Source of the DNA: Chloroflexota bacterium
Lineage (GTDB): Bacteria; Chloroflexota; UBA11872
DNA: 64,000 nt
Reading direction: 5' to 3'
Assembly (NCBI GenBank): GCA_022826485.1
Contig: JAJDUU010000044.1
Coordinates: 1-64,000, forward strand
The notes beneath the pieces were generated by a model. It made no database searches and had not been told where the DNA came from. It worked only from the letters and a program-made list of their open reading frames with translations. Positions 4,329 through 19,926 of this stretch are shown here, one piece after another (position 1 is the stretch's first letter; the number at the start of each line of letters is the position of its first letter). The position numbers and the translations under genes are program-made.

Positions 4329-5198
4329 CTACACCTCGATCGGCGGCGGGTAGGCCAGCGGGATCCCCGGCACCGACATGCGCAGGCGGTTGAGGTGCCA
4401 GCGGCCGAGGTTGGCGGTGAAGAGGTCGGTGAGGTCGGGGCCGCCGAAGACGATGTTGGTGGGTGAGGAGAGCTGCGTGTGGTTGGGGTCGTCCACGAGG
4501 ACCTGGATGCGTCCCGTGGGCTCGAGGCGATAGATGCGGCTGGGGGTGTAGAGCGTGATGTACAGCGTGCCCTCGACGTCGAACTGCACGCCGTCGGGCA
4601 CGTCGCCGGGGAGGGTGGCCACGACCTGGCGCTCGCCCAGGGTGCCGTCGTCGAGCACGCGCAGGCGGCTGACGCCGGGCATCTGCGACTCGACCACGTA
4701 GAGCCACTCACCCGCGGCGTCGAAACACATGCCGTTGGCGAAAAAGCGCGTCGCCTCGCTCACCAAATCCGTCGAGCCGTCGGGCCGCACGCGGTAGACC
4801 CGGCCGGTGTCGTGGTCCCATTCGCCCGAGTCGGAGACATAAAGGTCGCCGGAGGGATGAAAGCAGGGATAGTTCGGCGTATCCATGGGCCGGTCGGCGG
4901 TGCCGCGGGTGATCTCGTCCAGGCTGCCGTCGGGAGCGGCGCGCACGACCGTGCCGCTGTACGCGGCGCAGACGTAGACGTTTGCGTCGACGTCGCAGGC
5001 CACGCCGCCCAGGAAGCCCTCGTGCTGCGCGATCTGCGTGATGGCCCCGCTGTCCGGGTTCACGCGATAGATCTGCCCCGCCTCGCCGCCGGCGTAGAGC
5101 TGCCCGTCGGGGCCCCAGGTCACACCTTCGGGGTGATCCAAGCCGTCGTTGAAGTCGCCCGCGACCGTCTCGACCTCGGACACATCGCGTAGTGCCAT
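4329..5198 (-). CDS. SMP-30/gluconolactonase/LRE family protein
   Basis: A 289-residue six-bladed beta-propeller of the SMP-30/gluconolaconase family, metal-dependent lactone hydrolases acting on sugar lactones and related compounds. Blade motifs recur as HPEGVTWGPDGQLYAGG, GGVACDVDANVYVC, HPSGDLYVSDSG, ANGMCFDAAGEWLYVVES and DGVQFDVEGTLYIT. The conserved N/D metal-ligand positions (PEGV, FANGM, PDGVQFD) are present. No signal peptide, so cytoplasmic. It is transcribed away from moaA with a short shared upstream region. The substrate is not identifiable from sequence. Confidence 0.8.
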   Translation of the reverse strand: MALRDVSEVETVAGDFNDGLDHPEGVTWGPDGQLYAGGEAGQIYRVNPDSGAITQIAQHEGFLGGVACDVDANVYVCAAYSGTVVRAAPDGSLDEITRGTADRPMDTPNYPCFHPSGDLYVSDSGEWDHDTGRVYRVRPDGSTDLVSEATRFFANGMCFDAAGEWLYVVESQMPGVSRLRVLDDGTLGERQVVATLPGDVPDGVQFDVEGTLYITLYTPSRIYRLEPTGRIQVLVDDPNHTQLSSPTNIVFGGPDLTDLFTANLGRWHLNRLRMSVPGIPLAYPPPIEV

Positions 5199-5305
5199 GG
5201 TGCGCGCCCTCGATGAGTGTCTGGTCGCTCACGGTACATGACGCGGTTTGCGGCCGCCCACTGCGTAAACTCAGGGTGAAGACGCATCGGAGACGCACGC
5301 CGCCA

Positions 5306-6346
5306 GTGCCTGCCGCCATCGCCACCGACCCCGTCGACACGCTTGGCCGCCACATGCGCGACCTGCGCATTTCGGTGACGGACCGGTGCAATTTCCGCTG
5401 TCCCTATTGCATGCCGGCCGAGGTCTACGGCGAGCACTACACGTTCTTGCCGAAGACCCAGATCCTCACCTTCGAGGAGATCGCACGGCTGGCCGGCATC
5501 TTCGTCGAGCTTGGCGTGCGGAAGCTGAGGCTGACCGGCGGCGAGCCTCTGCTGCGGGCGGACCTGCCCAGCCTGGTCTCGATGCTGGCGGCGTTGCCGG
5601 TCGAGGACCTGGCGCTGACGACCAACGCCCATTTGCTCGCGCGGCACGCCGAGTCCCTGGCCCAGGCCGGGCTGCAGCGCGTGACGGTGAGTCTGGACAG
5701 CCTGGACGACGAGGTGTTTCGCGCCATGAACGGGCGGGGCTACGGCGTCGACGCGACGCTGGAGGGCATTGCCGCCGCCGAGCGCGTGGGCCTGTCGCCC
5801 ATCAAGCTGAACTGCGTGGTGGTGCGGGGCGTCAACGACCACACCATCGTCGACCTGGCGCGCCACTTTCACGGCACCGGGCACACCATGCGGTTCATCG
5901 AATACATGGACGTGGGCAACCTCAACCAGTGGAAGATGGACGAGGTCGTCACCGCCGACGAGATCGTGGAGCGCATTGGGACCGAGTTCCCACTCGAGCC
6001 GCTGCCGCCCAACTATCCCGGCGAGGTGGCGAATCGCTTTCGCTATCGCGACGGCGGCGGTGAGATCGGCGTCGTCGCGTCGGTGAGCCAGCCGTTCTGC
6101 GGCGCCTGCACGCGCGCGCGGCTCTCAACCGACGGCCACCTGCTGACCTGCCTGTTTGCGTTCGGCGGCACCGACCTGCGGACGCCCATGCGCGAGGGCG
6201 CCACGGACGCCGAGCTGCGCGAGCTGATCGCCGGCGTGTGGCAGGTCCGAGGCGACCGCTACTCCGAGGCGCGCGCGGGCCTCATCGCTGAAGACGGCCA
6301 CGGGCCGGAGGTCCAGAAGGTCGAGATGTTCCAGATCGGCGGCTAG
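5306..6346 (+). CDS. moaA: GTP 3',8-cyclase MoaA (molybdenum cofactor biosynthesis)
   Basis: Radical SAM enzyme for the first step of molybdopterin synthesis, converting GTP to 3',8-cyclo-GTP with MoaC. The N-terminal CNFRCPYC gives the SAM-binding 4Fe-4S cluster. The C-terminal CGACTRARLSTDG and a later LLTC supply the second cluster that binds GTP. LTGGEPLLR and the C-terminal GG are also typical. I chose the GTG at 5306 because it leaves a family-like short N-terminus before DTLGR. A GTG at 5276 is possible, and a start at 5192 would overlap the divergent gene. The cofactor is needed by the SUOX-like and xanthine-dehydrogenase-like enzymes in this window. Confidence 0.9.
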   Translation: MPAAIATDPVDTLGRHMRDLRISVTDRCNFRCPYCMPAEVYGEHYTFLPKTQILTFEEIARLAGIFVELGVRKLRLTGGEPLLRADLPSLVSMLAALPVEDLALTTNAHLLARHAESLAQAGLQRVTVSLDSLDDEVFRAMNGRGYGVDATLEGIAAAERVGLSPIKLNCVVVRGVNDHTIVDLARHFHGTGHTMRFIEYMDVGNLNQWKMDEVVTADEIVERIGTEFPLEPLPPNYPGEVANRFRYRDGGGEIGVVASVSQPFCGACTRARLSTDGHLLTCLFAFGGTDLRTPMREGATDAELRELIAGVWQVRGDRYSEARAGLIAEDGHGPEVQKVEMFQIGG

Positions 6347-6386: not shown

Positions 6387-7178
6387 ATGGCGGATCCCGG
6401 TCTCCTGGGCTTCGCCGCCGCGGCCATCGGCGTTTTCATGACGCTGGTGTGGCTGCTGAGCCTGCGGCTGCGCGACGCGTCGATCGTGGACGTGTTCTGG
6501 GGGCTGGGTTTCATCGTGGTCGGGGCGCTTACCGCGTGGCTCGGCGCGGGCGATGCCGGACGCGTCGCGCTGCTGCTGGTGTTGGTGGCAGTCTGGGGAC
6601 TGCGTCTGGCAGGGCACATCGGGTGGCGTAACCACGGCAAGCCCGAGGACCCGCGCTATCAGAAGTTCCGCGCCAACGCCGGGAGCGCCTTCTGGTGGCG
6701 CAGCTATTTCACCGTCTTTCTGCTCCAGGGCGTCGTGATGTGGGTGGTCGCGCTGCCGCTGCTGGCGGCTCTGGGCGAGCCGCAGCCGTCCCTGCCGACC
6801 GCGTGGGACGTGGCTGCCATCGTGCTCTGGGCCATCGGCTTGGCCTTCGAGGCGGGCGGCGACCTGCAACTGGCGCGATTCAAGGCCAACCCGGCCAATC
6901 GAGGGCGCGTGCTGTCAACCGGATTCTGGGGGCTGACGCGACACCCGAACTACTTCGGCGACGCCGTGGTGTGGTGGGGCTTCGGCTGCCTGGGACTCGC
7001 CGTCGGCGCGTGGTGGACGCTGATCGGCCCCGTCGTCATGACGGTGCTGCTGATGCGGGTGTCGGGCGTGACGCTGCTCGAGCGCAGCATGATCGAGAGC
7101 AAGCCGGGATATCGCGAGTACGTGGAGTCCACGCCGGCGTTCTTCCCGCGCCTCCCATTCCTGGGACCACGTGGATAG
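6387..7178 (+). CDS. DUF1295 domain membrane protein (steroid 5-alpha-reductase-like)
   Basis: A 263-residue membrane protein with about six or seven hydrophobic segments. The C-terminal LTRHPNYFGDAVVWWG is the signature of the DUF1295/steroid 5-alpha-reductase C-terminal fold, related to NADPH-dependent ene reductases and isoprenylcysteine methyltransferases. FWGLGFI and HIGWRNHGKPEDPRY are further family features. It starts the four-gene coupled cassette; the next gene's GTG lies eight bases inside its end. In that setting it may reduce a double bond in a lipid chain, which is inference. Confidence 0.78.
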   Translation: MADPGLLGFAAAAIGVFMTLVWLLSLRLRDASIVDVFWGLGFIVVGALTAWLGAGDAGRVALLLVLVAVWGLRLAGHIGWRNHGKPEDPRYQKFRANAGSAFWWRSYFTVFLLQGVVMWVVALPLLAALGEPQPSLPTAWDVAAIVLWAIGLAFEAGGDLQLARFKANPANRGRVLSTGFWGLTRHPNYFGDAVVWWGFGCLGLAVGAWWTLIGPVVMTVLLMRVSGVTLLERSMIESKPGYREYVESTPAFFPRLPFLGPRG

Positions 7179-8220
7179 CCAATCGGCCTGGTTCGAGCGG
7201 CTGGCGGCGCGGGGTGTGGCGCCCGACGGCGTGCTGCGCCTCGGCGTGCGGTTGGCTCTGCGGCGACGGCTGCGAGCGCTGCAACAGGGCGATCCTCAGG
7301 AGCGCTTTCGCACTCTGCGCGGTGGACCAACGGCGGTTGCCACGGACGCCGCAAACCGGCAGCACTACGAGGTGCCGACCGAATTCTTTCGCATGATCCT
7401 CGGTCCGAGGCTCAAGTACAGCAGCGCCCTCTGGCCGTCGGGCGTCGCGACGCTGGCGGAGGCCGAGGACGCCATGCTGGAGCTGTATGCCCAGCGCGCG
7501 GGTCTCGCGGACGGCCAGCGCGTGCTCGATCTGGGGAGCGGCTGGGGCTCCTTTGCCCTGTGGGCCGCGGCGCGGTATCCGGCGTCGACGATCACCGCCG
7601 TGACCAACTCACGCACCCAGCGCGACCATATCGTCGGCGAGGCCGAGGCGCGCGGCTTGGCAAACCTTGCCGTGGTGCACGCCAATGCCGCCACGGATGA
7701 GATTTCCGGTCGGTTCGACCGGATCGTGAGCATCGAAATGCTGGAGCACGTGCGAGATCACGGCGCGCTGCTGGCCCGCCTGGCCGATCGGCTCGATGCG
7801 GACGGGCTGCTATTCGTGCATGTCTTCAGCCACGTGCGTCACGCCTACGCCTTCGAGCCCGAGGACGGCTGGATGGCGCGGTGGTTCTTCAGCGGCGGCG
7901 CCATGCCGAGTCTGGACCTCTTCGAGGAATGCGCTCCCGCCGTGCGCACCGTCGACCGCTGGATCGTGAACGGCCGCCACTACGCGCGCACGCTGCGCGC
8001 GTGGCTGCGAAACTTCGACAAGCGCCGCCCGCAGATCGTTGAGCTCTTTCGGGATGTCTACGGCGACGACCTGGCGGATCTCTGGCTGATGCGGTGGCGG
8101 CTCTTCTTCATCGCTTGTGAGGAGCTGTTCGCCTACCGCGGCGGACGCGAGTGGGTGGTGGCGCATCATCTGTTTGCCCCCGCGAAGGTTGCCCAAGCCC
8201 AGGCGCGGCGGCACGCCTAG
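7171..8220 (+). CDS. Cyclopropane-fatty-acyl-phospholipid synthase-like methyltransferase
   Basis: A 349-residue SAM-dependent methyltransferase of the Cfa class, which methylates or cyclopropanates double bonds of membrane lipid acyl chains. The SAM site is VLDLGSGWGSFALWAA, followed by ITAVTNSRTQRDHI and the EMLEHVRDHG motif. The start is the GTG at 7171 overlapping the DUF1295 gene. The neighbours are an FAD amine oxidase-like protein and DUF1365, a recurring partnership in bacterial unsaturated-lipid modification loci. The product could be a cyclopropane, methyl-branched or furan fatty acid; sequence alone does not decide. Confidence 0.82.
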   Translation: MDSQSAWFERLAARGVAPDGVLRLGVRLALRRRLRALQQGDPQERFRTLRGGPTAVATDAANRQHYEVPTEFFRMILGPRLKYSSALWPSGVATLAEAEDAMLELYAQRAGLADGQRVLDLGSGWGSFALWAAARYPASTITAVTNSRTQRDHIVGEAEARGLANLAVVHANAATDEISGRFDRIVSIEMLEHVRDHGALLARLADRLDADGLLFVHVFSHVRHAYAFEPEDGWMARWFFSGGAMPSLDLFEECAPAVRTVDRWIVNGRHYARTLRAWLRNFDKRRPQIVELFRDVYGDDLADLWLMRWRLFFIACEELFAYRGGREWVVAHHLFAPAKVAQAQARRHA

Positions 8221-8291
8221 TCCCTTGCACCAAACGCGACCGACCGAGCGCGGCCGGTGAGCCGTGGGGCAGACATGAGACATCGCAAACC

Positions 8292-9533
8292 ATGAGAATC
8301 GCCGTCATCGGCGCCGGCGTGTCGGGCCTCGTCGTGGCGCGCCAGCTGCACGCGCGCCACGACGTCACGGTGTTCGAGGCCGGCGATGCACCGGGCGGAC
8401 ATGCGCGCACCATCGACGTGGAATCCGGCGGCCGAACCTTCGCGGTCGATACGGGATTCGTGGTCTTCAACGACCGCACCTATCCGGAGTTCCTGCGAAT
8501 CCTGGATGACCTCCGCGTCCCGACGCAGCCGTCCGATATGAGCTTCTCCGTGCGCTGCGATCGCACGGGCGTCGAGTACGGCGGGGCGTCGCTCAACGCC
8601 GTATTCGCCCACCGCCGCAATCTGCTGCGCCCCACGTTCCTGCGGTTGGTGCGCGACTACCTGCGCTTCAATCGCCAGGCGCCCAAGCTGCTGGAGGCCG
8701 ACGAGCGGCTCACGCTGGACGACTACCTGAAGGGCGCCGGGTTCTCGCGCGCCTTTCGCGAGCTGTACCTGGTGCCCATGGGCGCCGCCATTTGGTCAAC
8801 CGACCCCGGGCGCTTCGCCCGGATTCCCGTTCGGTCGTTCGTCCGTTTCTTTCACAACCACGGACTGCTGGCGATTCGAGGCAAGCCGACCTGGTATTCG
8901 ATCACCGGCGGCGCCCGCGAATATGTCGAGGCATTGGCGCGGCCCTTTCGCGATCGGATCCATACTCGGGCCACCGTGACCCGCGTGCGGCGGGAGCACG
9001 ACCACGTCAGCGTCACCGTTGCCGGTGGGGGCGACGCCCGATTCGATCGGGTGGTGCTGGCGACCCACAGCGACCAGGCCCTGCAATTGCTTGACGATCC
9101 CAGCCCCGAGGAGCGCGCCGTCCTTGGGGCCATCGAGTACCAGACCAACAGCGTCGTGCTGCACACCGACACCAGCCTGCTGCCCCGGCGGCGACGCGCC
9201 TGGGCCGCGTGGAACTACTACATTCACCCAGACGGTGGGGAGCGGGTGGCGACGACCTACAACATGAACCGCCTGCAGCATTTGGACGCGCCGGAGACCT
9301 TCTGCGTCACGCTCAACCAGGACGAGCGCATCGACGAGGCGTCCGTGATCGCCCGCATGACCTACCACCACCCGATGCTCAGCCGCGCGGCGATCGCCGC
9401 CCAGCGCCGGTGGACCGATGTCAACGGCTGGCGCCGGACCTGGTATGCCGGCGCCTACTGGGGCCATGGATTCCATGAAGACGGCGTCGTGAGCGGCCTG
9501 CGCGTGGCGCGGGCGATCGAGGCCGGCGCATGA
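8292..9533 (+). CDS. FAD-dependent amine oxidase/desaturase-like protein
   Basis: A flavoprotein of about 413 residues. The N-terminus MRIAVIGAGVSGLVVA is a Rossmann GxGxxG, followed by the acidic FEAGDAPGGHA that binds the FAD ribose. It belongs to the NAD(P)-binding, flavin-containing amine oxidoreductase group that is regularly adjacent to Cfa-like methyltransferases. The C-terminal AGAYWGHGFHEDGVVSGL is the FAD pyrophosphate-proximal motif, with the bound GFHEDG variant typical of this group. The ATG at 8292 fits; earlier codons lack family similarity. Its stop overlaps the DUF1365 start (ATGA). It probably oxidises or reduces a lipid acyl group rather than an amine. Confidence 0.82.
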   Translation: MRIAVIGAGVSGLVVARQLHARHDVTVFEAGDAPGGHARTIDVESGGRTFAVDTGFVVFNDRTYPEFLRILDDLRVPTQPSDMSFSVRCDRTGVEYGGASLNAVFAHRRNLLRPTFLRLVRDYLRFNRQAPKLLEADERLTLDDYLKGAGFSRAFRELYLVPMGAAIWSTDPGRFARIPVRSFVRFFHNHGLLAIRGKPTWYSITGGAREYVEALARPFRDRIHTRATVTRVRREHDHVSVTVAGGGDARFDRVVLATHSDQALQLLDDPSPEERAVLGAIEYQTNSVVLHTDTSLLPRRRRAWAAWNYYIHPDGGERVATTYNMNRLQHLDAPETFCVTLNQDERIDEASVIARMTYHHPMLSRAAIAAQRRWTDVNGWRRTWYAGAYWGHGFHEDGVVSGLRVARAIEAGA

Positions 9534-10321
9534 GCGGCGCGAGTTGTCTCTACACCGGCGTCGTCACGCACCGGCGGCGACAACCGGTGAGCCACGCATT
9601 TCGCTATCCGCTCTTCATGGCGTATCTCGATCTCGCCGAGCTTCCCGGCGTGTTCGATGGACGCCTGCTCTGGTCCGCGCGGCGTCCGGCGCCGGCGTGG
9701 TTTCGCCGGGCCGATCACTTCGGCGATCCGGCGCTGCCGCTCGACGAGGCGGTGCGGCGGCGCGTCCACGAGGCGACGGGAATCCGACCCGAAGGTCCGA
9801 TTCGCCTGCTGACCCACCTGCGCTACTTCGGCTACGTCTTCAATCCGATCAGCGTCTACTACTGCTTCGCTCCCGACAACGAGCGGGTCGAGGCGCTGGT
9901 GGCCGAGGTCACGAATACGCCCTGGGGAGAACGCCACGTCTATGTCGTGGCGCCTGAGTCGACCGCCGACGGCGGCAGGCTACAGGCGGACTTCTCGAAG
10001 GCGTTGCACGTTTCGCCCTTCATGACCATGGATATGGACTACCGGCTGTCGGCGACGGTGCCAGGCGATGAGCTCGACGTACGCATGGTGGCGGCACGCC
10101 ATGGCGCGCCGATCTTCGACGCTGGCCTCTCGCTGCGTCGGCGGCCCATGACCGCGGGCGCGCTGGCCGGCGTGCTGGTTCGGTATCCGTTCATGACGGC
10201 GCGCGTGGTTGCCGCGATCTACTGGCAGGCGCTGCGGCTGAGGCTGAAGGGCGTGCCCTTCGTGCCGCATCCGGCGCGCCGCCGTGCTGCGCAGGAGGAG
10301 CGCCTGGAATCCGGCAACTAG
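9530..10321 (+). CDS. DUF1365 domain-containing protein
   Basis: A 263-residue protein of the DUF1365 family, unknown in detail but tied by gene neighbourhood to Cfa-like methyltransferases and FAD amine oxidase-like proteins. Conserved family features are the N-terminal LYTGVVTHRR, FRYPLFMAYLDL, the central YFGYVFNPISVYYCF, VTNTPWGERHVYV and the later FMTMDMDYR. It begins within the stop of the preceding gene. It ends 22 bases from the convergent nfuA gene. I cannot name a reaction; the context suggests acyl-chain modification. Confidence 0.8.
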   Translation: MSGASCLYTGVVTHRRRQPVSHAFRYPLFMAYLDLAELPGVFDGRLLWSARRPAPAWFRRADHFGDPALPLDEAVRRRVHEATGIRPEGPIRLLTHLRYFGYVFNPISVYYCFAPDNERVEALVAEVTNTPWGERHVYVVAPESTADGGRLQADFSKALHVSPFMTMDMDYRLSATVPGDELDVRMVAARHGAPIFDAGLSLRRRPMTAGALAGVLVRYPFMTARVVAAIYWQALRLRLKGVPFVPHPARRRAAQEERLESGN

Positions 10322-10343: not shown

Positions 10344-10997
10344 CTACTTCTTGGCGGCCTCGAAGTAGGGATTCGTGCCCGAGGCGTGGTCGGTCACGTC
10401 GATCACCCGGGTGACCTCGGGCACGGCCTCGCGGATGGCCACCTCGATGCCCTGCGTCAGCGTCACCGCCGCCATGCCGCAGCCCTGGCAACCGCCGCTG
10501 AGGCGCAGGTAGGCCGCGCCGTCCTCGACCGAGACCAGCTCGGCGTGCCCACCGTGCGCGGCGATGGCAGGGTTGATTTGCTGTTCGAGAATCTGCGCGA
10601 CCTGATCCGCCACCGCGCCGCTGAGCTGTGGCGTCGGGGCGTCGTGCGCGGCCGGTCCGGCCACCGGGCTCGGGGTGTTCGGGTTGTCCACGAATAGGCC
10701 GCCGCCGTTGGGAGCGGACCGGTAGTCGATGGTGGCGCCGTTCAGCTGGTCGGTGCTCCCATCGGGAACGACCACGTTGAGCCCGTAGGCGACTTCGACA
10801 ACCGCGTCACTGGGTCCCGCGTCGCGCGTGCTCTTCAGGTACATGTCGTAGCTGAAGCCCGTCCCGGAAACACCCGTGACCTCGATCCACATGGCCAGGT
10901 CGTCCTTGTCCGGGCGGTCGGAGCGCGCGCGAAAATCAAGCACCAGGTCGCGTGCGGCTTCGCTGATGAAAACATCGGTGTCGTGTTGCAGGGTCAT
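10344..10997 (-). CDS. nfuA: NfuA-type iron-sulfur cluster carrier
   Basis: A protein of about 217 residues with two parts. The N-terminal half is an A-type (IscA-like) fold without the usual cysteines, as in E. coli NfuA. The C-terminal half is an Nfu domain with GGCQGCGMA, the CxxC that holds a bridging 4Fe-4S cluster. NfuA delivers and restores clusters, notably the auxiliary cluster that lipoyl synthase consumes; lipA lies 4 kb away. The ATG at 10997 was preferred over one at 11006. It is divergent from the ATP-grasp/radical SAM pair, whose radical SAM enzyme would also need a 4Fe-4S cluster. Confidence 0.85.
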   Translation of the reverse strand: MTLQHDTDVFISEAARDLVLDFRARSDRPDKDDLAMWIEVTGVSGTGFSYDMYLKSTRDAGPSDAVVEVAYGLNVVVPDGSTDQLNGATIDYRSAPNGGGLFVDNPNTPSPVAGPAAHDAPTPQLSGAVADQVAQILEQQINPAIAAHGGHAELVSVEDGAAYLRLSGGCQGCGMAAVTLTQGIEVAIREAVPEVTRVIDVTDHASGTNPYFEAAKK

Positions 10998-11053
10998 GCT
11001 TCCCATCCAGCGGGCATGCGGCGCGTCGTCCGTTCGTGTTTCATCATAGGACG

Positions 11054-12325
11054 ATGCGCCGGGTTCTCCTACTGTTGCCGACGAGGGCGTACCGCGCGGC
11101 CGACTTTCTCGAAGCCGCCCGGGATCTTGGCGTCGAGGTTGTCGTCGGCGCGGAGCAACGCCACGCGCTGGAGGACGTGGTTGATTCGCGCGTGATCGAG
11201 CTGCCCCTCCACCGTCCCGAGGTTGCGGCGGACGCCATCGTTGAGTTCGCCGACGAGATGCCGCTCAGCGCCATCGTCCCGGTGGATGATGCCGGCGTCG
11301 GGGCGGCGTCGCTCGCGGCGGAGCGCTTGGGCCTGGCGCACAGTCCACCCGCGGCGACGGCGCTCACGCGGGACAAGGCCGGCATGCGACGGCGCTTGGC
11401 GCAGGCCGGCGTGCCGCAACCGGACTTCGTCCTCGTGGCGGGCGGTGACGACCCGGCCGCCGCCGCGGCGAGGCTCGGATTCCCGGTGGTGATCAAACCC
11501 CTGGAGCTGTCGGGCAGCCAGGGGGTCATCCGCGCCGACACGCCGGCGGAAGCCGCGACAGCGGCGGCGCGAATCCAGCGCATGCTCGCGCTTCCCGCTG
11601 ACGACGAACCTGCGGCGTTGCTGATCGAGCGCTTCGTGCCCGGCGTGGAGGTTGCGGTGGAGGGGCTGCTGCGCCGTGGGACGCTGCACACGCTGGCCAT
11701 CTTCGACAAGCCGGATCCGCTCGACGGTCCCTATTTCGAGGAGACGCTCTACATCACGCCGTCGCGCCTGCCAGAGCGGAGGCAGCGTGTCGTGGAGGAG
11801 GTGACGCGCGCGGCGGTGGCGGGGCTGGGGCTCACCGAGGGTCCGGTGCATGCCGAGGTGCGCCTCGACGGCGACGCGCCGTCGGTCATCGAGATCGCCG
11901 CGCGCTCGATCGGCGGGCTCTGCGCCCGATCGTTGCGATTCGGGCTGGGCGTGTCGCTGGAGTCGCTGATCTTGCGGCATGCGCTGAACCTGCCGCTCCG
12001 GGACACCACGCGGATGCATGCCGCATCGGGCGTGATGATGTTGCCCATTCCCCTCGCCGGCGTGCTGGTCGACGTGCGCGGGCGCGAGGCGGCACTCGAT
12101 GTTTCGGACATCGTGGGACTGGAAATCACCATTGCGCCGGGCAATTGGGTCGAGCCGCTGCCGGAGGGCGACCGCTATCTTGGCTTCATGTTTGCGCGGG
12201 GTGAGACGCCCCAAGCCGTCGAGTCGGCCCTGCGGCGCGCGCATGCGAAGCTTGACGTGCGAATCGATCCGGATCGAGCGCCCCGGCGGCGCGACGGATC
12301 GCAGGCCTCGGAGGCGGGACGTTGA
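11054..12325 (+). CDS. ATP-grasp ligase, partner of the radical SAM protein
   Basis: A protein of about 423 residues with an ATP-grasp fold: N-terminal pre-ATP domain (RRVLLLLPTRAYRAADF), central FPVVIKPLELSGSQGVIRA for nucleotide binding, LIERFVPGVEVAVEGLL, and a C-terminal VHAEVRLDG followed by VIEIAARSIGG holding metal ligands. Such enzymes form amide or peptide bonds via acyl phosphates. It resembles the carbamoyl-phosphate-synthase/L-amino-acid-ligase branch. Its stop overlaps the ATG of the radical SAM gene (TGATG), so the two are made together. Substrate is unknown; a small peptide or amino-acid metabolite is possible. Confidence 0.82.
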   Translation: MRRVLLLLPTRAYRAADFLEAARDLGVEVVVGAEQRHALEDVVDSRVIELPLHRPEVAADAIVEFADEMPLSAIVPVDDAGVGAASLAAERLGLAHSPPAATALTRDKAGMRRRLAQAGVPQPDFVLVAGGDDPAAAAARLGFPVVIKPLELSGSQGVIRADTPAEAATAAARIQRMLALPADDEPAALLIERFVPGVEVAVEGLLRRGTLHTLAIFDKPDPLDGPYFEETLYITPSRLPERRQRVVEEVTRAAVAGLGLTEGPVHAEVRLDGDAPSVIEIAARSIGGLCARSLRFGLGVSLESLILRHALNLPLRDTTRMHAASGVMMLPIPLAGVLVDVRGREAALDVSDIVGLEITIAPGNWVEPLPEGDRYLGFMFARGETPQAVESALRRAHAKLDVRIDPDRAPRRRDGSQASEAGR

Positions 12326-13737
12326 TGCGAGTCCTGATTGTCTCCACCTACGAGCTTGGACACCAGCCGGTGCATGCGGCCTCGCCGGCCGCGGCGCTGC
12401 AGGCGGCTGGGCACGAGGTGCACGCGCTGGACCTTGCCGTCGAGATGTGGGACCCGGACGCCCTGGACGGCATCGACGCGCTGGCGTTCTCCGTGCCGAT
12501 GCACACGGCCATGCGCATTGCCGTGAGCGCCGCGCAGGCGGCGCGCCGCACGCACCCTGACGTACCTGTCTGCTTCTACGGTCTGTACGGCGAGATGGCG
12601 CCGGCGCTCGACCCAAGCCACCCCATGGACCGCGCGCTCGCCGGCGAGTATGAGCCCGAGCTCGTCGCCTGGGTGGACGCCCTGGCCGGCGCGAACGGAT
12701 CGGCAGCCCTCTCGTCCGACATCGTCCAACTCACCAAACACGCCTATCACGCCCCGGCGCGCGAGTTGCTCCCGCCAATTGATCGCTACGCGCGGCTTGC
12801 CGTCGACGGTGAGGAGCGTTTGGCCGGCTACGTCGAGGCCAGCCACGGCTGCGTGCACAAGTGCCGCCACTGTCCGGTGCCGGTGGTCTACGACGGCCGC
12901 ATTCGCATCGTCGGCGCCGACACCGTGCTGGATGACATTGCGCGGCTCGTCGATGCGGGCGCGCGCCACATCACCTTCGGCGATCCCGACTTCCTCAACG
13001 GCTGGCGTCACTCGCACAAGGTCGTGCGGGCCATGCACGCGCGGTTCCCGGACCTCACGTTCGACTGCACCACCAAGGTGGAGCACATCCTGGAGCACGC
13101 CCACGTGTGGCCGGAGTTCGCCGACGCCGGATGCCTGTTCGTCATTTCGGCGTTCGAGTCGCTCAACGACGAGACCCTGGAGCGCCTGGACAAGGGTCAC
13201 GTGGCCGCCGAGGCCGAGCAGGCGATCACCCTGCTGCGCCTCCACGGCATCGAGACGCGGCCATCGTGGCTGCCGTTCACCCCGTGGACGACCTTCGCCG
13301 ACGTGCTGGACATCCTCGATTTCGTCGCCGTGAACGACCTGGTGGGCAACGTCGATCCGGTGCAGTACAGCATCCGGCTCCTGCTGCCGAAGGGATCGCT
13401 GCTGCTCGACCTGCCCGACATGCGGCGCTACCTGGGCCCGTACGACGAGGCGCAATTGAGCTATGCGTGGCGGGCCGCCGATCCGGCGGTCGATGCGCTT
13501 CAGGCCGAAATCGGGGCCCTGGTGGCGGCAATGGCCGACGAGGACGCGGATATCGCCACGTCCTACGCCGCGGTTCGGGCGCTTGCCCTCGACGCCGCCG
13601 GGGCTGCCGCCGAGGGCCGCCGTCGTGAGATTTCAGTCGACTTGGAGCGCGCGGCAGCCCGACCCAGGCTCACCGAGGCCTGGTTCTGCTGCGCCGAGCC
13701 AACCGAGCTGCAATTCGCACAACTGGCGGGGATCTAG
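12325..13737 (+). CDS. B12-binding-like radical SAM protein with CCAEP tail
   Basis: A 470-residue radical SAM enzyme. The N-terminal ~130 residues look like a Rossmann B12-binding-type domain (VLIVSTYELGHQPVH), but I see no DxHxxG cobalamin motif. The radical SAM core has C176, C180 and C183 in CVHKCRHC. The C-terminus carries CCAEP at residues 455-459, eleven residues from the end, matching the tail motif of a family I recall as CUAEP/CCAEP-tail radical SAM (seleno)proteins. Here the first residue is encoded by TGC, so this is the all-cysteine form. It is coupled to the ATP-grasp gene upstream. Reaction unknown. Confidence 0.85.
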   Translation: MRVLIVSTYELGHQPVHAASPAAALQAAGHEVHALDLAVEMWDPDALDGIDALAFSVPMHTAMRIAVSAAQAARRTHPDVPVCFYGLYGEMAPALDPSHPMDRALAGEYEPELVAWVDALAGANGSAALSSDIVQLTKHAYHAPARELLPPIDRYARLAVDGEERLAGYVEASHGCVHKCRHCPVPVVYDGRIRIVGADTVLDDIARLVDAGARHITFGDPDFLNGWRHSHKVVRAMHARFPDLTFDCTTKVEHILEHAHVWPEFADAGCLFVISAFESLNDETLERLDKGHVAAEAEQAITLLRLHGIETRPSWLPFTPWTTFADVLDILDFVAVNDLVGNVDPVQYSIRLLLPKGSLLLDLPDMRRYLGPYDEAQLSYAWRAADPAVDALQAEIGALVAAMADEDADIATSYAAVRALALDAAGAAAEGRRREISVDLERAAARPRLTEAWFCCAEPTELQFAQLAGI

Positions 13738-14004: not shown

Positions 14005-14691
14005 ATGGCGTCGAGCACCGTCGATCTGCACCGAGCGGGCCGGGTGGCCTATCGCGACGCGTGGGCGTGGCAGCAGGCGCGCGCCGACGACATTCGCGCG
14101 GGCACGGCGGCCGAGGCGCTGGCCGTGCTCGAGCATCCGCCGGTGTACACCTGTGGCCGCCGCAGCGACCCGGCGAACCTGCTGGCGTCCCCGGAGCGGC
14201 TGGCCGCCCAGGGGATCGAGGTCGTTGACGTGGAACGCGGCGGCGACGTGACCTATCACGGCCCGGGCCAGCTGGTGGCCTATCCGATCCTGGATTTGCG
14301 CCGCCGCGGTATCTATCCGATCAGCTTCGTACGCGGCCTGGAGCAAACGCTGGTGACCACGCTGGCGACCCTCGGCGTGCCCGCGGCGCCCCGCAAGAAC
14401 CTGCCCGGCGTGTGGGTGGGCAACGACAAGATCGCCGCGCTGGGCGTGCATGTGCGCGGCGGCGTGAGTATGCACGGCATATCGCTCAACCTGGCGCCGG
14501 ACCTCGCGGCCTTCGAGGCCATCGTGCCCTGCGGCATCCATGACGCCGGCATCACCTCCGTGGAGCGCTACTGTGGAGCGGCGCCCGACGACGAGGCCGC
14601 CAAGGAGGCTTTCATCAACGCCTTCGCGCAGACGTTCGACGTCGTCCTGCGGGACGCCCACTCGGAGATGGCCCTCGCCAATGGCCACTAA
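14005..14691 (+). CDS. lipB: Lipoyl(octanoyl) transferase LipB
   Basis: A 228-residue enzyme that moves octanoate from acyl carrier protein to lipoyl domains. RGGDVTYHGPGQLVAYPI (from about residue 78) is the family signature. The catalytic pair is visible as K142 in DKIAALGVHV and C176 in PCGIHDAGITSVER. It precedes lipA with an 11-base overlap and sits just upstream of pyruvate dehydrogenase genes whose E2 carries the target lysine. Confidence 0.93.
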   Translation: MASSTVDLHRAGRVAYRDAWAWQQARADDIRAGTAAEALAVLEHPPVYTCGRRSDPANLLASPERLAAQGIEVVDVERGGDVTYHGPGQLVAYPILDLRRRGIYPISFVRGLEQTLVTTLATLGVPAAPRKNLPGVWVGNDKIAALGVHVRGGVSMHGISLNLAPDLAAFEAIVPCGIHDAGITSVERYCGAAPDDEAAKEAFINAFAQTFDVVLRDAHSEMALANGH

Positions 14692-15577
14692 AGTCCGGCC
14701 CCGGTACCCGAAGCCCGCGTGGCTCAAGGTGCGCGCGCCGACCGGCGACCGCTTTGCGGGCCTGAAGCGGCTGATGCGCACGCAATCCCTGCACACGGTG
14801 TGCGAGGAGGCGCGCTGCCCCAACATCGGCGAGTGCTGGAACGACGGCCACGCCACCTTCATGATCCTGGGCGACACCTGCACCCGCGCCTGTGGCTTCT
14901 GCGCCGTCACGTCGGGCCGGCCGGACACAGTCGACCCGCTGGAGCCGCTGCGCCTGGCGGCCGCGGTCGAGCGCATGGGGCTGGACTATTGCGTGATTAC
15001 GTCCGTCAACCGCGACGACGTGCCGGACGGCGGGGCGAGCGTGTTTGCCGGCTGCATTCGCGCGGTGCGCCGCGTGCGACCGTCATGCCAGGTCGAGGTG
15101 CTGATACCCGACTTCATGGGCAACTGGGACGCCTTGGCCACGGTGATGGAGGCGCGCCCGGTGGTGCTCAACCACAACACGGAGACGGTGCCGCGCCTCT
15201 ACGCCCGCGTGCGACCCAAGGCGCGCTACGAGCGGACGCTGGAGCTCATTCGTCGCGCGGCCAATTTGGCGCCGGACGTTGCAACCAAGTCGGGCGTGAT
15301 GGTCGGGTTGGGCGAGACCCGCGAGGAGCTGCGCGCGACCCTTGCCGACCTGGTGGAGCATCGCTGCGAGTTGCTCACGGTGGGGCAATACCTCCAGCCG
15401 ACGCGCAAGCATCTGCCGGTGCAGCGCTTCTATCATCCCGACGAGTTCGTCGAGATCGCCGAGGAGGCCCGAGCGCTCGGGTTCGTCCACGTGGAATCCG
15501 GTCCCCTGGTGCGCAGCTCGTACCACGCGGGCCGGCAGGCCCTGGCCGCGTCCATGAACCGCGCGCGCGTGGAATGA
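14681..15577 (+). CDS. lipA: Lipoyl synthase LipA
   Basis: A 298-residue radical SAM enzyme inserting two sulfurs into protein-bound octanoate. The auxiliary cluster cysteines are C41, C46 and C52 (CEEARCPNIGEC); the SAM-cluster cysteines are C67, C71 and C74 (CTRACGFC). The C-terminal RSSYHAG provides the serine ligand of the auxiliary cluster. The ATG at 14681 lies inside the end of lipB, giving a normal family N-terminus. The auxiliary cluster is sacrificed as a sulfur source, which links this gene to nfuA nearby. Confidence 0.95.
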   Translation: MATKVRPRYPKPAWLKVRAPTGDRFAGLKRLMRTQSLHTVCEEARCPNIGECWNDGHATFMILGDTCTRACGFCAVTSGRPDTVDPLEPLRLAAAVERMGLDYCVITSVNRDDVPDGGASVFAGCIRAVRRVRPSCQVEVLIPDFMGNWDALATVMEARPVVLNHNTETVPRLYARVRPKARYERTLELIRRAANLAPDVATKSGVMVGLGETREELRATLADLVEHRCELLTVGQYLQPTRKHLPVQRFYHPDEFVEIAEEARALGFVHVESGPLVRSSYHAGRQALAASMNRARVE

Positions 15578-15732
15578 AGGGCCAGAACCGGCGCGGCACG
15601 CTCGTCTCGCCGGTGGCGCCCCGTCAAAGCTCAACGGTCACGGGCGGAGTCAGGCCAATCCCGGCCATCCAGCAGCCGCTGAAGCGTCCGTCGCCGGGCG
15701 TACTACCCTTGCATAGTCTCTAGGCGGAGCGC

Positions 15733-18432
15733 ATGGCACAGCTAGACACCCAGCGCGACGGCGCCCTGAACGGCGGGCAGGGGTCGGACGCGGTCGAGAC
15801 GCGAGACTGGCTGGACGCGCTGCACGACGTGCGGCGGCTTTCGGGCAATGAGCGCGTACGCGAGTTGCTGCGCGAGCTGCAAATCCACGCGCAGCGGGCC
15901 GGCGGCGTGCTGCCGGTCACCGCCCGCACGCCGTATGCCAACACCATCCCGCCCGAGCGGGAGCCGGCCTATCCCGGCGACGAGGCGCTCGAGTGGCAGA
16001 TCCGCAGCATCATTCGCTGGAATGCAATGGCCATGGTCGTGGCGGCCAACCGCGAGGCAGACGGCATCGGCGGACATATCTCCACCTATGCCTCGGCGGC
16101 CACCCTCTATGAGGTTGGCTTCAACCACTTCTTCCGCGGGCCGGAACACCCGGAGGGGCCGGACATCATCTATTTCCAGGGCCACGCGACGCCCGGCATC
16201 TATGCCCGGGCCTATCTCGAAGGTCGCCTGACCGCCGAGCAAATCCACGACTTTCGGCGTGAGCTCATGCCCAGCGGCGGCGTTTCGTCGTATCCGCATC
16301 CCTGGCTCATGCCCGATTTCTGGCAGTTCCCGACCGTGTCCATGGGCTTGGGTCCCTTGATGTCGATCTACCAGGCGCGGTTCATGCGCTATCTGGAGGA
16401 TCGAGGACTCAAGCAGCCTTCCGACCAGCGGGTGTGGGCGTTCGTGGGCGACGGCGAAGCCGACGCGCCGGAGACGATCGCGGCAATCTCTCTGGCCGGG
16501 CGCGAGCACCTGGACAATCTCACCTGGGTGGTCAACTGCAACCTGCAGCGCCTGGACGGCCCGGTGCGCGGCAACGGCAACATCGTCCAGGAGCTCGAGG
16601 GACTGTTTCGCGGCGCCGGCTGGAACGTGATCAAGGTCCTCTGGGGCCGCGATTGGGACGAGCTGTTCGCCAACGATCACGACGGCCTGCTCACGCGCCG
16701 CGCCGGCCAGATCGTCGACGGGGAATATCAGAAATACAGCGTGGCCGGCGGGGCCTACATCCGCGAAAACTTCTACGGGGTGGACGAGCGATTGCTGGCC
16801 ATGGTCGCCGACCGCAGCGACGAGGATCTGGTGCGCATGAACCTCGGCGGGCACGACGCACGCAAGGTCTACGCGGCGTTCAACTCGGCCGTGCGCCACG
16901 AAGGCGCCCCGACGGTCGTCTTGGCGCGCACGATCAAGGGCTATGGACTCGGCGAGGCCGGCGAAGGCCGCAACGTGACGCATCAGCAGAAGCAGCTGAA
17001 CGAGGACGAGCTGCTGACGTTCCGCGATCGATTCAAGATCCCGATTTCCGATGAGGACGTCGGTCGCGCCCCGCTCTATCGCCCGGCGCCCGAGAGCCGC
17101 GAAGTCCGCTATCTCACCGTCCGCCGCGAGGAGCTTGGCGGATTCATGCCGATGCGCAAGGCGGAGAAGAGCCAGATATCGACCCCGCCGGCCGACGTAT
17201 TCGCCGAGTTCGAGGCCGGCAGTGAGCGACCTGCCACCACGACCATGGCGTTCGTGCGCATGCTGTCTAAGCTGCTGCGCGATCCGGCGCTGGGTCCGCG
17301 CGTCGTTCCGATCGTGCCGGACGAAGCCCGCACCTTCGGCATGGAGGCGCTCTTCCGCCAGGTCGGCATCTACTCAGCTGTGGGGCAGCTCTACGAGCCG
17401 GTCGATTCGGCGTCGCTCCTCTACTACAAGGAGGCCACCGACGGCCAGATTCTGGAGGAAGGGATCGCCGAGGCGGGCGCGATGAGCTCGTTCATCGCCG
17501 CCGGGACTTCACACGCGACCTACGGCGTCGCCACGCTGCCGTTCTTTATCTACTACTCGATGTTCGGCTTCCAGCGCGTCGGCGACCTCGTCTGGGCCGC
17601 GGCTGACGCCAGGACGCGCGGATTCCTGCTGGGCGCCACCGCGGGTCGCACGACGCTGTCAGGCGAGGGCTTGCAGCATCAGGACGGCCACAGCCATCTC
17701 TTGTTCTCGGTCGTGCCGACGTGCCTGGCCTACGATCCCGCGTTTGCCTATGAGATCTCGGTCATCATTCGCGAGGGCATCCGCCGCATGCACGAGCAGG
17801 ACGAGGACGTGTTCTATTACCTCACCCTCGGCAACGAGGCGTATCCGCATCCCCAGCTTCCCGAAGTCGAGGGGGTGCGGGAAGGCATCCTCAAGGGCAT
17901 GTACCGCTTGAGCTCCGCCGAGGCGCCGCCCGACCAACCGCGCGCCACCCTGCTGGGCAGCGGCGCAATCCTGAACGAGGTTCTCGCGGCGCAGGAGATG
18001 CTGGCGGCGAGGTACGGCGTGGCGGCCGACGTGTGGTCGGTGACGAGCTATACGGAGCTTCGCCGGGAGGCGCTGGACGCGGACCGATGGAACATGCTGC
18101 ATCCGGACCGGACGCCGCGCACGTCGTACGTGGCGACGTGCCTGGCGGATGCGCCCGAGGTGGTCGTGGCCGCGACCGACTACATGAAATCGCTGCCCGA
18201 CCTCATTGCCAAATGGGTTCCCGGGCGGCTCGTGGCGCTGGGCACCGACGGCTTCGGGCGCAGCGATACGCGCGCGGCCCTGCGCGACTTCTTCGAGGTC
18301 GATGCCCGCTTCGTGACCCTGGCGACCCTGCACGCGCTCGCGTCTGAGGGCCGGATCGACTCCGAGCTCGTCTCGGAGGCGATCGAAGACCTGAACATCG
18401 ACGCCGAGAAACCGAATCCGCGGCTGAGTTGA
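15733..18432 (+). CDS. aceE: Pyruvate dehydrogenase E1, homodimeric AceE type
   Basis: An 899-residue TPP-dependent decarboxylase of the single-chain AceE type, the usual length for proteobacterial and actinobacterial E1. The TPP motif is GDGEADAPE followed by VVNCNLQRLDGPVRGNG; GHISTYASAATLYEVGFNHFF lines the active site. The ATG follows GGCGGAG at good distance. It is followed by E2 (44-base gap) and then E3. TPP supply links it to the thiamine importer at the start of the window. Confidence 0.95.
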   Translation: MAQLDTQRDGALNGGQGSDAVETRDWLDALHDVRRLSGNERVRELLRELQIHAQRAGGVLPVTARTPYANTIPPEREPAYPGDEALEWQIRSIIRWNAMAMVVAANREADGIGGHISTYASAATLYEVGFNHFFRGPEHPEGPDIIYFQGHATPGIYARAYLEGRLTAEQIHDFRRELMPSGGVSSYPHPWLMPDFWQFPTVSMGLGPLMSIYQARFMRYLEDRGLKQPSDQRVWAFVGDGEADAPETIAAISLAGREHLDNLTWVVNCNLQRLDGPVRGNGNIVQELEGLFRGAGWNVIKVLWGRDWDELFANDHDGLLTRRAGQIVDGEYQKYSVAGGAYIRENFYGVDERLLAMVADRSDEDLVRMNLGGHDARKVYAAFNSAVRHEGAPTVVLARTIKGYGLGEAGEGRNVTHQQKQLNEDELLTFRDRFKIPISDEDVGRAPLYRPAPESREVRYLTVRREELGGFMPMRKAEKSQISTPPADVFAEFEAGSERPATTTMAFVRMLSKLLRDPALGPRVVPIVPDEARTFGMEALFRQVGIYSAVGQLYEPVDSASLLYYKEATDGQILEEGIAEAGAMSSFIAAGTSHATYGVATLPFFIYYSMFGFQRVGDLVWAAADARTRGFLLGATAGRTTLSGEGLQHQDGHSHLLFSVVPTCLAYDPAFAYEISVIIREGIRRMHEQDEDVFYYLTLGNEAYPHPQLPEVEGVREGILKGMYRLSSAEAPPDQPRATLLGSGAILNEVLAAQEMLAARYGVAADVWSVTSYTELRREALDADRWNMLHPDRTPRTSYVATCLADAPEVVVAATDYMKSLPDLIAKWVPGRLVALGTDGFGRSDTRAALRDFFEVDARFVTLATLHALASEGRIDSELVSEAIEDLNIDAEKPNPRLS

Positions 18433-18475
18433 TGCGAGCGACAGACTCGAGTGCGGCCGGCGAGAAGCGACCGTC

Positions 18476-19774
18476 ATGAGCGTCGAGGTGCGCCTGCCGG
18501 ATCTCGGTGAGGGGATCGAGGAAGCCGACGTCTTGAGCGTGCTGGTGGGTGTGGGGCAGTCGGTCGCCGCCGGCGACTCCGTGATCGAAATCGAGAGTGA
18601 GAAGGCGACCCTGGAGGTGCCGACCGACGCCGGGGGCACCGTCACCGGGATTCAGGTCAAATCCGGCGACACGATTGCGGTGGGCCAGCTAGTGCTCACG
18701 CTGGAGCCAGACGGCGCGGAGCCGCCGCCGCAGCGTCCAGCGGCCGAGCCCGAGATCGATGAGGCGCCTCGGCCAACCGCCGATGGCGCGGCGGATGGCC
18801 CGACCGTCGAACCGCCGCCGGCAAGCGATGGCCCCGAGGTCCACATTGCGCCGCGCTTCGCGGACGCCGAGGTCGACGCTGGTGACCGACCGGTAGCCGC
18901 CGCACCCTCAGTACGCATCTTCGCGCGGGAAATCGGCGTGGACGTGCGCCAGGTCGAAGGCTCAGGCCCGGCAGGGCGGATCTCCATCGACGACGTCAAG
19001 GCGCATGCCCGCCGCCGCACCTCCGCGCCGGCGCCGGACCGTTCCGAGCCGCTTCCCGACTTTGCCCAATGGGGCCCCATCGAGCGCGTCCGGCTGAGCC
19101 GCTTGCGGCGGACGCTGGCCGACAATCTGGCGCAATCGTGGGCCACGATTCCCCACGTCACGTTGTTCCACGAGGCCGACGTGACCGACATCGAGGCCAT
19201 GCGCGCCGAACACAAGGAGCGCGCGGCCGCTCAGGGCGCCAAGCTCACGATCACGGCGTTCTTGCTGCCGATCGTCGCGGCGGCGCTGAAGGCCCACCCC
19301 AACGTCAACGCCAGCCTGGACCTGACCGCGGGGGAGATCGTGCAGAAGGGTTACTACCACCTGGGGGTCGCCGCCGACACGGAGCGGGGGCTGCTGGTGC
19401 CGGTGGTCCGTGACGCGGACACCAAGGGCGTAATCGAGATCGCGGCTGAGTTGACCGGCATCGCCGAGCGCGCGCGCGCCGGCAGGCTGACGCCGGACGA
19501 GATGCAGGGTGCGACGTTCACCATCAGCAACCTCGGCGGGCTGGGAACCGGATTCTTCACCCCGATCGTGAACCCGCCCGAGGTGGCGATCCTGGGCGTC
19601 GGCCGCGCCGTCCCGCGCGCGACGCTCCACGACGACGCCATGCAAACGCGGCTCATGCTCCCGCTGTCGCTCTCGTTCGATCATCGGGCGCTCGACGGCG
19701 CCGACGGCGCACGCTTCCTGTCCTGGATCGCCGATGCGCTCGAGCAGCCGACGATGCTGGCGATGGAGTCATAG
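18476..19774 (+). CDS. aceF: Dihydrolipoamide acetyltransferase E2
   Basis: A 432-residue E2 with one lipoyl domain (K43 in IEIESEKATLEVP), a Pro/Ala-rich linker, a peripheral subunit-binding domain (VRIFAREIGVDVRQVEGSGPAG... around residues 142-180) and a CoA-acyltransferase domain ending in SFDHRALDGADGARFL with the catalytic His-Asp. E. coli E2 has three lipoyl domains; this has one. It receives acetyl groups from E1, is lipoylated by LipB/LipA and reoxidised by E3. The first gene is 44 bases upstream. Confidence 0.92.
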   Translation: MSVEVRLPDLGEGIEEADVLSVLVGVGQSVAAGDSVIEIESEKATLEVPTDAGGTVTGIQVKSGDTIAVGQLVLTLEPDGAEPPPQRPAAEPEIDEAPRPTADGAADGPTVEPPPASDGPEVHIAPRFADAEVDAGDRPVAAAPSVRIFAREIGVDVRQVEGSGPAGRISIDDVKAHARRRTSAPAPDRSEPLPDFAQWGPIERVRLSRLRRTLADNLAQSWATIPHVTLFHEADVTDIEAMRAEHKERAAAQGAKLTITAFLLPIVAAALKAHPNVNASLDLTAGEIVQKGYYHLGVAADTERGLLVPVVRDADTKGVIEIAAELTGIAERARAGRLTPDEMQGATFTISNLGGLGTGFFTPIVNPPEVAILGVGRAVPRATLHDDAMQTRLMLPLSLSFDHRALDGADGARFLSWIADALEQPTMLAMES

Positions 19775-19926
19775 GAGCGCGACCACAGTGACCGTACGGA
19801 AACTAGAGCCCGTTCGCCCCCGGATCGAGTACCGGGCAGGCTCTGAGCTTGTCGAAGGGCCGTTCATGGTTCGACAAGCTCACCACGAACGGATGGCGCT
19901 GGCTTGTTGACCCTCCCTAGAGTGCC
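19775..19926. repeat. Intergenic inverted repeat between E2 and E3
   Basis: Perfect 12-base arms gagcttgtcgaa (19845-19856) and ttcgacaagctc (19870-19881), flanked by ccgttc/gaacgg, would form a hairpin in RNA. A smaller cccgg/ccgggc palindrome precedes it near 19817-19837. There is no T-run, so it is more like a dispersed repeat than a terminator; it may tune E3 expression relative to E1-E2. Confidence 0.6.

What the first reader, a model, noticed from the sequence alone, without database searches (positions are those of the whole stretch)
11054..13737. ATP-grasp plus CCAEP-tail radical SAM pair of unknown function
Seen: two genes overlapping as TGATG, an ATP-grasp ligase and a radical SAM enzyme with C176/C180/C183 and a CCAEP motif eleven residues from its end. 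From memory, such tails define a family whose other members have selenocysteine at the first position (CUAEP). A conserved redox-active CC/UC pair at the C-terminus of a radical SAM protein, next to an amide-forming ATP-grasp, suggests an undescribed two-step modification of a small metabolite or peptide. The nearby nfuA could serve its cluster. No substrate is known.
Basis: partly seen in the sequence, partly recalled or inferred. Interest (0 to 1): 0.75.

Follow-up and report, generated by a model that had tools for sequence, protein, structure and literature searches.

The report
Radical SAM and peptide-ligase gene pair
Two overlapping genes in a Chloroflexota genome encode a radical enzyme related to the one that makes an arsenic antibiotic and a ligase that joins amino acids; the two occur together in almost every bacterium that has the radical enzyme, so they probably make an unknown small molecule in two steps.

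Summary
At 11054-12325 is an ATP-grasp ligase; at 12325-13737 (overlap TGATG) a radical SAM enzyme with C176/C180/C183 and a WFCCAEP tail. The latter is a clear member of NCBIfam NF040546 (CUAEP/CCAEP-tail radical SAM, function unknown). In 100 of 100 loci with a complete C-terminus the tail is W[F/Y]C[C/U][A/S]EP (52 CC, 48 CU), and the CU genes carry a covarying bacterial SECIS hairpin.

[quoted passage not shown] the vicinal CC aligns with ArsL's RCCLKC tail. Second, the pairing is nearly obligate: 96 of 98 CUAEP Chloroflexota genomes, and 34 of 36 genomes mainly from other phyla without an adjacent copy, encode this L-amino-acid-ligase orthologue, often far away; only 33 of 302 CUAEP-negative genomes do. 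A divergent NfuA-like gene (10344-11006) and, elsewhere, DUF169 belong to the module.

Best model: ACP-radical transfer to a soft acceptor held by Cys-Cys/Sec, coupled to dipeptide formation. Arsenic as acceptor is disfavoured. Substrate remains unknown.

The parts
11054..12325 (+). ATP-grasp ligase of the L-amino-acid-ligase type (P0002, 423 aa)
   Evidence: PF13535, LAL_C2 PF18603, ATPgrasp_N; closest solved structure L-amino acid ligase BL00235, 3vot, 2.5e-32
12325..13737 (+). CCAEP-tail radical SAM protein (P0001, 470 aa)
   Evidence: NF040546 559.5 bits, cut-off 500; ArsL model NF040542 276 bits; next family 38.9 bits; AF2 model pLDDT 92
12323..12327 (+). TGATG overlap of the ATP-grasp stop and the radical SAM start
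   Evidence: sequence
12850..12873 (+). codons C176 to C183: CX3CX2C radical SAM cluster motif
   Evidence: invariant in 44 CUAEP and 5 ArsL-type sequences
13687..13701 (+). CCAEP tail (C455 C456 A E P); Sec replaces C456 in half of the relatives
   Evidence: 100/100 loci W[FY]C[C/U][A/S]EP; C455-C456 aligns with the CC of ArsL RCCLKC
10344..11006 (-). NfuA-like Fe-S carrier (P0003, 220 aa), divergent from the ATP-grasp
   Evidence: NifU domain 6.9e-23, TIGR03341 99.5 bits below cut-off; conserved neighbour in 43 of 101 loci; adjacent to the ligase in 52 of 59 genomes that have both
11007..11053 (.). 47-bp intergenic region between the divergent nfuA-like and ATP-grasp genes
   Evidence: sequence; same divergent layout in many relatives

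Best explanation
A dedicated two-enzyme pathway. Step A: the L-amino-acid-ligase-type ATP-grasp joins two amino acids, or an amino acid and a small acid, with ATP. [quoted passage not shown] The NfuA-like protein helps keep the radical SAM enzyme's [4Fe-4S] cluster intact under air. The ligase probably acts first, or independently, because it occurs without the radical SAM gene but the reverse is almost never seen. Shown here: family memberships, tail invariance, Sec recoding signature, alignment of the tail with ArsL, near-obligate pairing, NfuA link. Inferred: ACP chemistry, role of the tail, peptide product, order of steps. Unknown: the acceptor.
For: ArsL is the nearest family by far (276 bits; next 38.9), and 51 residues are invariant in both groups, including E10, D220, D222, T249, E278, K290, R351, the three cluster cysteines and the tail C455-C456. 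ArsL makes hydroxyarsinothricin alone in E. coli (PMC8552651), and ACP transfer to As is attributed to it (Yao 2024, as cited in PMC12159101). Pairing: 96/98 CUAEP Chloroflexota genomes carry the ligase orthologue (at least 42% identity), 50 within 6 kb and 46 elsewhere, against 33/302 without CUAEP; 34 of 36 further genomes, mostly from other phyla, without an adjacent copy have it elsewhere. Four of five RCCLKC-tail clusters on plasmids also carry an ATP-grasp gene. Ligase relatives: 3vot, BacD. NfuA-like: 28/33 ligase-only and 31/98 CUAEP genomes, 4/269 others.
Against: The protein is below the ArsL model's cut-off, and CUAEP members have invariant residues absent from ArsL (H13, H60, H182, H292, R312), so the acceptor differs and SAM cleavage could too. 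The ATP-grasps of ArsL clusters are only about 25% identical to this one, so that partnership may be convergent. The NfuA link also exists without the radical SAM gene, so NfuA is not only its servant. No product or activity is known. Co-occurrence p-values ignore shared ancestry.
Confidence: 0.42

Rival explanations
1. Canonical radical SAM chemistry with a redox tail: the enzyme makes a 5'-deoxyadenosyl radical that modifies the ligase's peptide product, and the Cys-Cys/Cys-Sec tail gives an electron or hydrogen atom or re-reduces the active site, like the Cys-Sec tail of mammalian thioredoxin reductase.
For: Sec at one position of a vicinal pair is typical of redox catalysis; Cys and Sec interchange freely (52 CC, 48 CU). 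The fold matches canonical and methylating radical SAM enzymes: AprD4, OxsB, MgmA, TsrM.
Against: The closest family is ArsL, not these enzymes, and the CC pair aligns with the ArsL tail. The whole WFC[C/U]AEP context is invariant, more than a mobile redox tail needs.
Confidence: 0.25
2. Organoarsenical pathway: like ArsL it transfers ACP to As(III) held by the tail, and the ligase makes a hydroxyarsinothricin dipeptide.
For: ArsL homology; RCCLKC clusters with arsR, arsM, MFS and ArsN1-type genes carry ATP-grasp genes too; a SaoD/DsrE family gene beside six CUAEP genes, a family that I recall from organometallic selenoprotein operons (memory).
Against: No recurrent ars gene among 106 nearest non-core neighbours. 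Acr3 in 2/40 CUAEP-positive and 10/40 CUAEP-negative genomes. No exporter in the conserved set. ArsL's third tail Cys is missing. Presence in every species searched of the window's family looks like core metabolism. ArsB was not tested.
Confidence: 0.12
3. Low-molecular-weight thiol or metal-handling peptide: the ligase makes a cysteine-containing peptide that works with the NfuA-like protein (and YggX in some lineages) in Fe-S trafficking, and the radical SAM enzyme modifies it.
For: Ligase and NfuA-like genes are adjacent even in genomes without the radical SAM gene; yggX neighbours; nfu in multicopy suppresses loss of bacillithiol in S. aureus (PMC8593673). BshC absent from all 77 genomes tested.
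Against: BshC is equally absent from CUAEP-negative genomes; many CUAEP genomes have an MshC-like gene below the family cut-off. No substrate evidence.
Confidence: 0.13
4. Ribosomal peptide (RiPP) modification by the ATP-grasp and radical SAM pair.
For: Graspetide-type ATP-grasp and radical SAM pairs exist in general (PMC8939145, listed).
Against: The ligase is of the free amino-acid type; no conserved short ORF of 20-75 codons near the genes; partner genes often lie far apart.
Confidence: 0.04

Closest known systems
CUAEP/CCAEP-tail radical SAM (seleno)protein, NCBIfam NF040546
   Same: Score above cut-off, CX3CX2C, invariant CC/CU tail; the window protein is a member
   Different: The family had no function; no partner or paper was found here
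ArsL, arsinothricin radical SAM enzyme (NF040542, RCCLKC tail)
   Same: Nearest family, 51 shared invariant residues, vicinal CC at the C-terminus, ATP-grasp in several clusters
   Different: Below the ArsL cut-off, no third tail Cys, no ars operon, extra invariant His/Arg residues, wide core-like distribution
L-amino-acid ligases BL00235 (3vot), BacD, DdaF
   Same: ATP-grasp core and LAL_C2 domain, near full-length similarity
   Different: Separate orthologous group (at least 42% identity inside; the only second hit in the genomes is 26%) with an invariant Cys296 after the GG motif, tied to CUAEP and NfuA-like genes
NfuA (TIGR03341)
   Same: N-terminal A-type-like and C-terminal NifU domain with CxxC
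   Different: Below the equivalog cut-off in the window (99.5 of 269 bits); linked to the ligase

Membership tests
NF040546 CUAEP/CCAEP-tail radical SAM protein | Model score above the curated cut-off of 500 bits | tested here: met
   559.5 bits
NF040546 CUAEP/CCAEP-tail radical SAM protein | C-terminal C-(C/U)-A-E-P | tested here: met
   C455-C456-A-E-P459; 100/100 relatives, six with SEP
NF040546 CUAEP/CCAEP-tail radical SAM protein | Sec recoding in CU members (UGA plus bSECIS) | tested here: met
   7-bp stem, 6.32 of 7 pairs in CU against 2.73 in CC, with several pair types per position
ArsL (NF040542) | Model score above the curated cut-off of 450 bits | tested here: not met
   276.2 bits
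ArsL (NF040542) | RCCLKC tail | tested here: not met
   CC shared, LKC replaced by AEP
ArsL (NF040542) | ars operon context (arsR, arsM, permease) | tested here: not met
   no recurrent ars neighbour in 101 loci
ArsL (NF040542) | ACP transfer from SAM to As(III) | not testable with these tools
   needs enzyme assay
L-amino-acid ligase (ATP-grasp) | ATP-grasp core and LAL C-terminal domain | tested here: met
   PF13535 9e-28, PF18603 3.3e-15; 3vot 2.5e-32
L-amino-acid ligase (ATP-grasp) | ATP-dependent dipeptide formation | not testable with these tools
   needs enzyme assay
NfuA (TIGR03341) | NifU domain with CxxC | tested here: met
   C173 and C176 in 43/43 sequences
NfuA (TIGR03341) | Score above the equivalog cut-off of 269 bits | tested here: not met
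   99.5 bits
RiPP biosynthesis | Conserved precursor peptide gene nearby | tested here: not met
   no conserved ORF of 20-75 codons other than antisense of known genes

The most novel reading that the evidence does not exclude
A widespread, partly selenium-dependent core pathway in Chloroflexota, Actinobacteria and other phyla that makes an unknown ACP-bearing peptide, metal ligand or thiol cofactor. It would use radical ACP transfer onto a non-arsenic acceptor, a reaction known outside ArsL only from diphthamide synthesis, followed or preceded by peptide ligation.
Probability: 0.3. Interest if true: 0.85.

Novelty: new variant of a known kind. Interest (0 to 1): 0.62.

Why it matters
It turns an orphan selenoprotein family with only a motif name into a testable pathway: a defined partner ligase, a defined accessory Fe-S carrier, and a chemical prediction from ArsL. 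If correct, many environmental bacteria make an undescribed small molecule by radical ACP transfer, and the Cys/Sec tail gives a natural Cys-Sec comparison for metalloid or chalcogen binding in a radical enzyme.

Tried and rejected
A wrong accession from memory (NF038083) gave noise and was dropped. The viral-contig scan found nothing. Papers: no hits for CUAEP/CCAEP; the Haft selenoprotein papers that may describe related families are not held. Arsenic context was expected from the ArsL homology, but neighbours and Acr3 speak against it. RiPP precursor: none. A first ORF-clustering run let antisense ORFs win and was redone with homology weighting. LMW-thiol gene profiles (BshC, MshC) did not discriminate. 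DUF169 co-occurs with CUAEP (59/98 against 40/302) but less tightly than the ligase.

Full report
What is there. The window, from a 3.17 Mb Chloroflexota genome bin, holds an ATP-grasp gene at 11054-12325 and a radical SAM gene at 12325-13737, overlapping as TGATG at 12323-12327. The radical SAM protein has C176, C180, C183 and ends ...PRLTEAWFCCAEPTELQFAQLAGI. It scores 559.5 bits against NF040546 (cut-off 500), 'CUAEP/CCAEP-tail radical SAM (seleno)protein', 276 bits against ArsL, and 38.9 bits against the next family. The ATP-grasp has an ATP-grasp core and the L-amino-acid-ligase C-terminal domain; the closest solved structures are L-amino acid ligase BL00235 (3vot, 2.5e-32) and alanine-anticapsin ligase BacD. 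A divergent NfuA-like gene (10344-11006, minus strand) lies 47 bp upstream.

The tail. Among 101 loci from Chloroflexota, Actinobacteria, Acidobacteria, Rokubacteria, Nitrospirae, KSB1, Poribacteria and others, all 100 with a complete C-terminus have W[F/Y]C[C/U][A/S]EP: 52 CC and 48 with UGA at the second position. Downstream of the UGA a 7-bp stem with an AGUU(C/G/U) loop forms 6.32 of 7 pairs in CU genes against 2.73 in CC genes, with several pair types per position, the mark of a bacterial SECIS. SelB is found in most CU genomes tested and also in the window's own genome, although its tail is CC. Thermomicrobium roseum's protein is annotated truncated exactly at the UGA.

Kinship with ArsL. 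I aligned 44 CUAEP with 5 RCCLKC-tail sequences from plasmids (Pseudomonas amygdali arsL and four relatives). 51 positions are invariant in both, among them the cluster cysteines and C455-C456. ArsL alone lets E. coli make hydroxyarsinothricin from As(III) and was proposed to transfer the ACP group of SAM (PMC8552651); [quoted passage not shown] CUAEP proteins lack ArsL's third tail cysteine and have their own invariant H13, H60, H182, H292 and R312, so the acceptor should differ. The AF2 model is confident (pLDDT 92, residues 441-460 about 80-91); Foldseek finds the B12-domain radical SAM class (AprD4, OxsB, MgmA, TsrM).

Partners. Homology-weighted gene clustering around the 101 loci gave four recurrent genes besides the radical SAM gene itself: the ATP-grasp (48 loci), the NfuA-like gene (43), a DUF169 gene (27) and a SaoD/DsrE family gene (6); yggX and a formyltransferase recur mainly in Ktedonobacteria-type genomes. 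Adjacency understates the link. Over 400 Chloroflexota genomes, 96 of 98 with CUAEP carry the ligase orthologue (42-100% identity), 50 of them within 6 kb and 46 elsewhere, against 33 of 302 without CUAEP; the two exceptions (G017, G207) are fragmented bins whose genus-mates have it. Of 38 genomes reached through other loci, mostly of other phyla, 36 have it, including 34 of the 36 without an adjacent copy; a second, clearly different match in one of them is only 26% identical. Fisher p-values (9e-61) ignore phylogeny; at genus level all 47 CUAEP genera have the ligase in at least one genome.

The reverse is not true: 33 genomes have the ligase without CUAEP, and in 28 of these the NfuA-like gene is present, usually divergent and adjacent. 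NfuA-like genes are almost confined to ligase genomes (59 of 63). Where ligase and radical SAM gene are apart, the NfuA-like gene sits beside the radical SAM gene in four genomes of two genera (G181, G233, G320, G387). The nested pattern suggests that the ligase acts first or independently and that the radical SAM enzyme works on, or supplies, its product. This ordering is inference.

Arsenic? Four of five RCCLKC clusters examined also carry an ATP-grasp gene, with arsR, arsM, MFS and GNAT genes in various combinations, which supports the idea that an ACP amino acid is ligated to a peptide. Those ligases are only about 25% identical to the window's. Near CUAEP genes no ars gene recurs (106 neighbours scanned), and Acr3 is rarer in CUAEP genomes (2/40) than in others (10/40). 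I therefore treat arsenic as an unlikely acceptor here, while the ACP chemistry stays the best guess. ArsB was not tested.

Judgement. Shown: family membership, the invariant CC/CU tail with the signature of Sec recoding, ArsL paralogy including the tail pair, near-obligate pairing with one ligase orthologue, and the NfuA link. Inferred: ACP-radical transfer, tail as acceptor site, peptide product, order of steps. Unknown: acceptor and product. The radical SAM protein is a member of a known but functionless family; the module and its chemical prediction are, as far as the searchable literature goes, not described, with the caveat that two selenoprotein papers by Haft and co-workers could not be read.

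Noticed in passing
L171, L172, L173, L174 (Priestia, Alicyclobacillus, Pantoea, Klebsiella plasmids): RCCLKC-tail (ArsL-type) clusters carry an L-amino-acid-ligase-like ATP-grasp gene with arsR/arsM/MFS/GNAT genes in various combinations, suggesting arsinothricin-type dipeptides.
   Followed up: partly
L170:7935-9371 (Thermomicrobium roseum, WP_012643191.1): The annotated CUAEP protein stops at ...WFC: truncated at the Sec UGA.
   Followed up: yes
L181-L200: Ligase and NfuA-like pairs, usually divergent and adjacent, in Chloroflexota without any CUAEP radical SAM gene.
   Followed up: partly
L116, L117, L118, L127, L131, L135: Acidimicrobiaceae variants with CCSEP in place of CCAEP.
   Followed up: yes
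G000:C30:102529-103806: The window's genome has a SelB above cut-off although its own CUAEP-family gene uses Cys; its Sec proteins were not sought.
   Followed up: no
window 14005-21354: lipB, lipA, pyruvate dehydrogenase E1, E2 and a dihydrolipoyl dehydrogenase-like gene follow directly; the arrangement recurs only in close relatives.
   Followed up: partly
window 6387-10321: DUF1295, cyclopropane-fatty-acid-synthase-like, flavin amine oxidase and DUF1365 genes in a row, a lipid-modification-type cluster, after a moaA-like gene (5192-6346).
   Followed up: no
L084, L091, L092, L094, L097, L145: SaoD/DsrE family gene (NF040913) beside the CUAEP radical SAM gene, facing the opposite way, mostly in Solirubrobacterales-type actinobacteria.
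   Followed up: partly
G000:C29:3332-3931: DUF169 gene, adjacent to the module in the sister genus, lies on another contig in the window's genome.
   Followed up: partly
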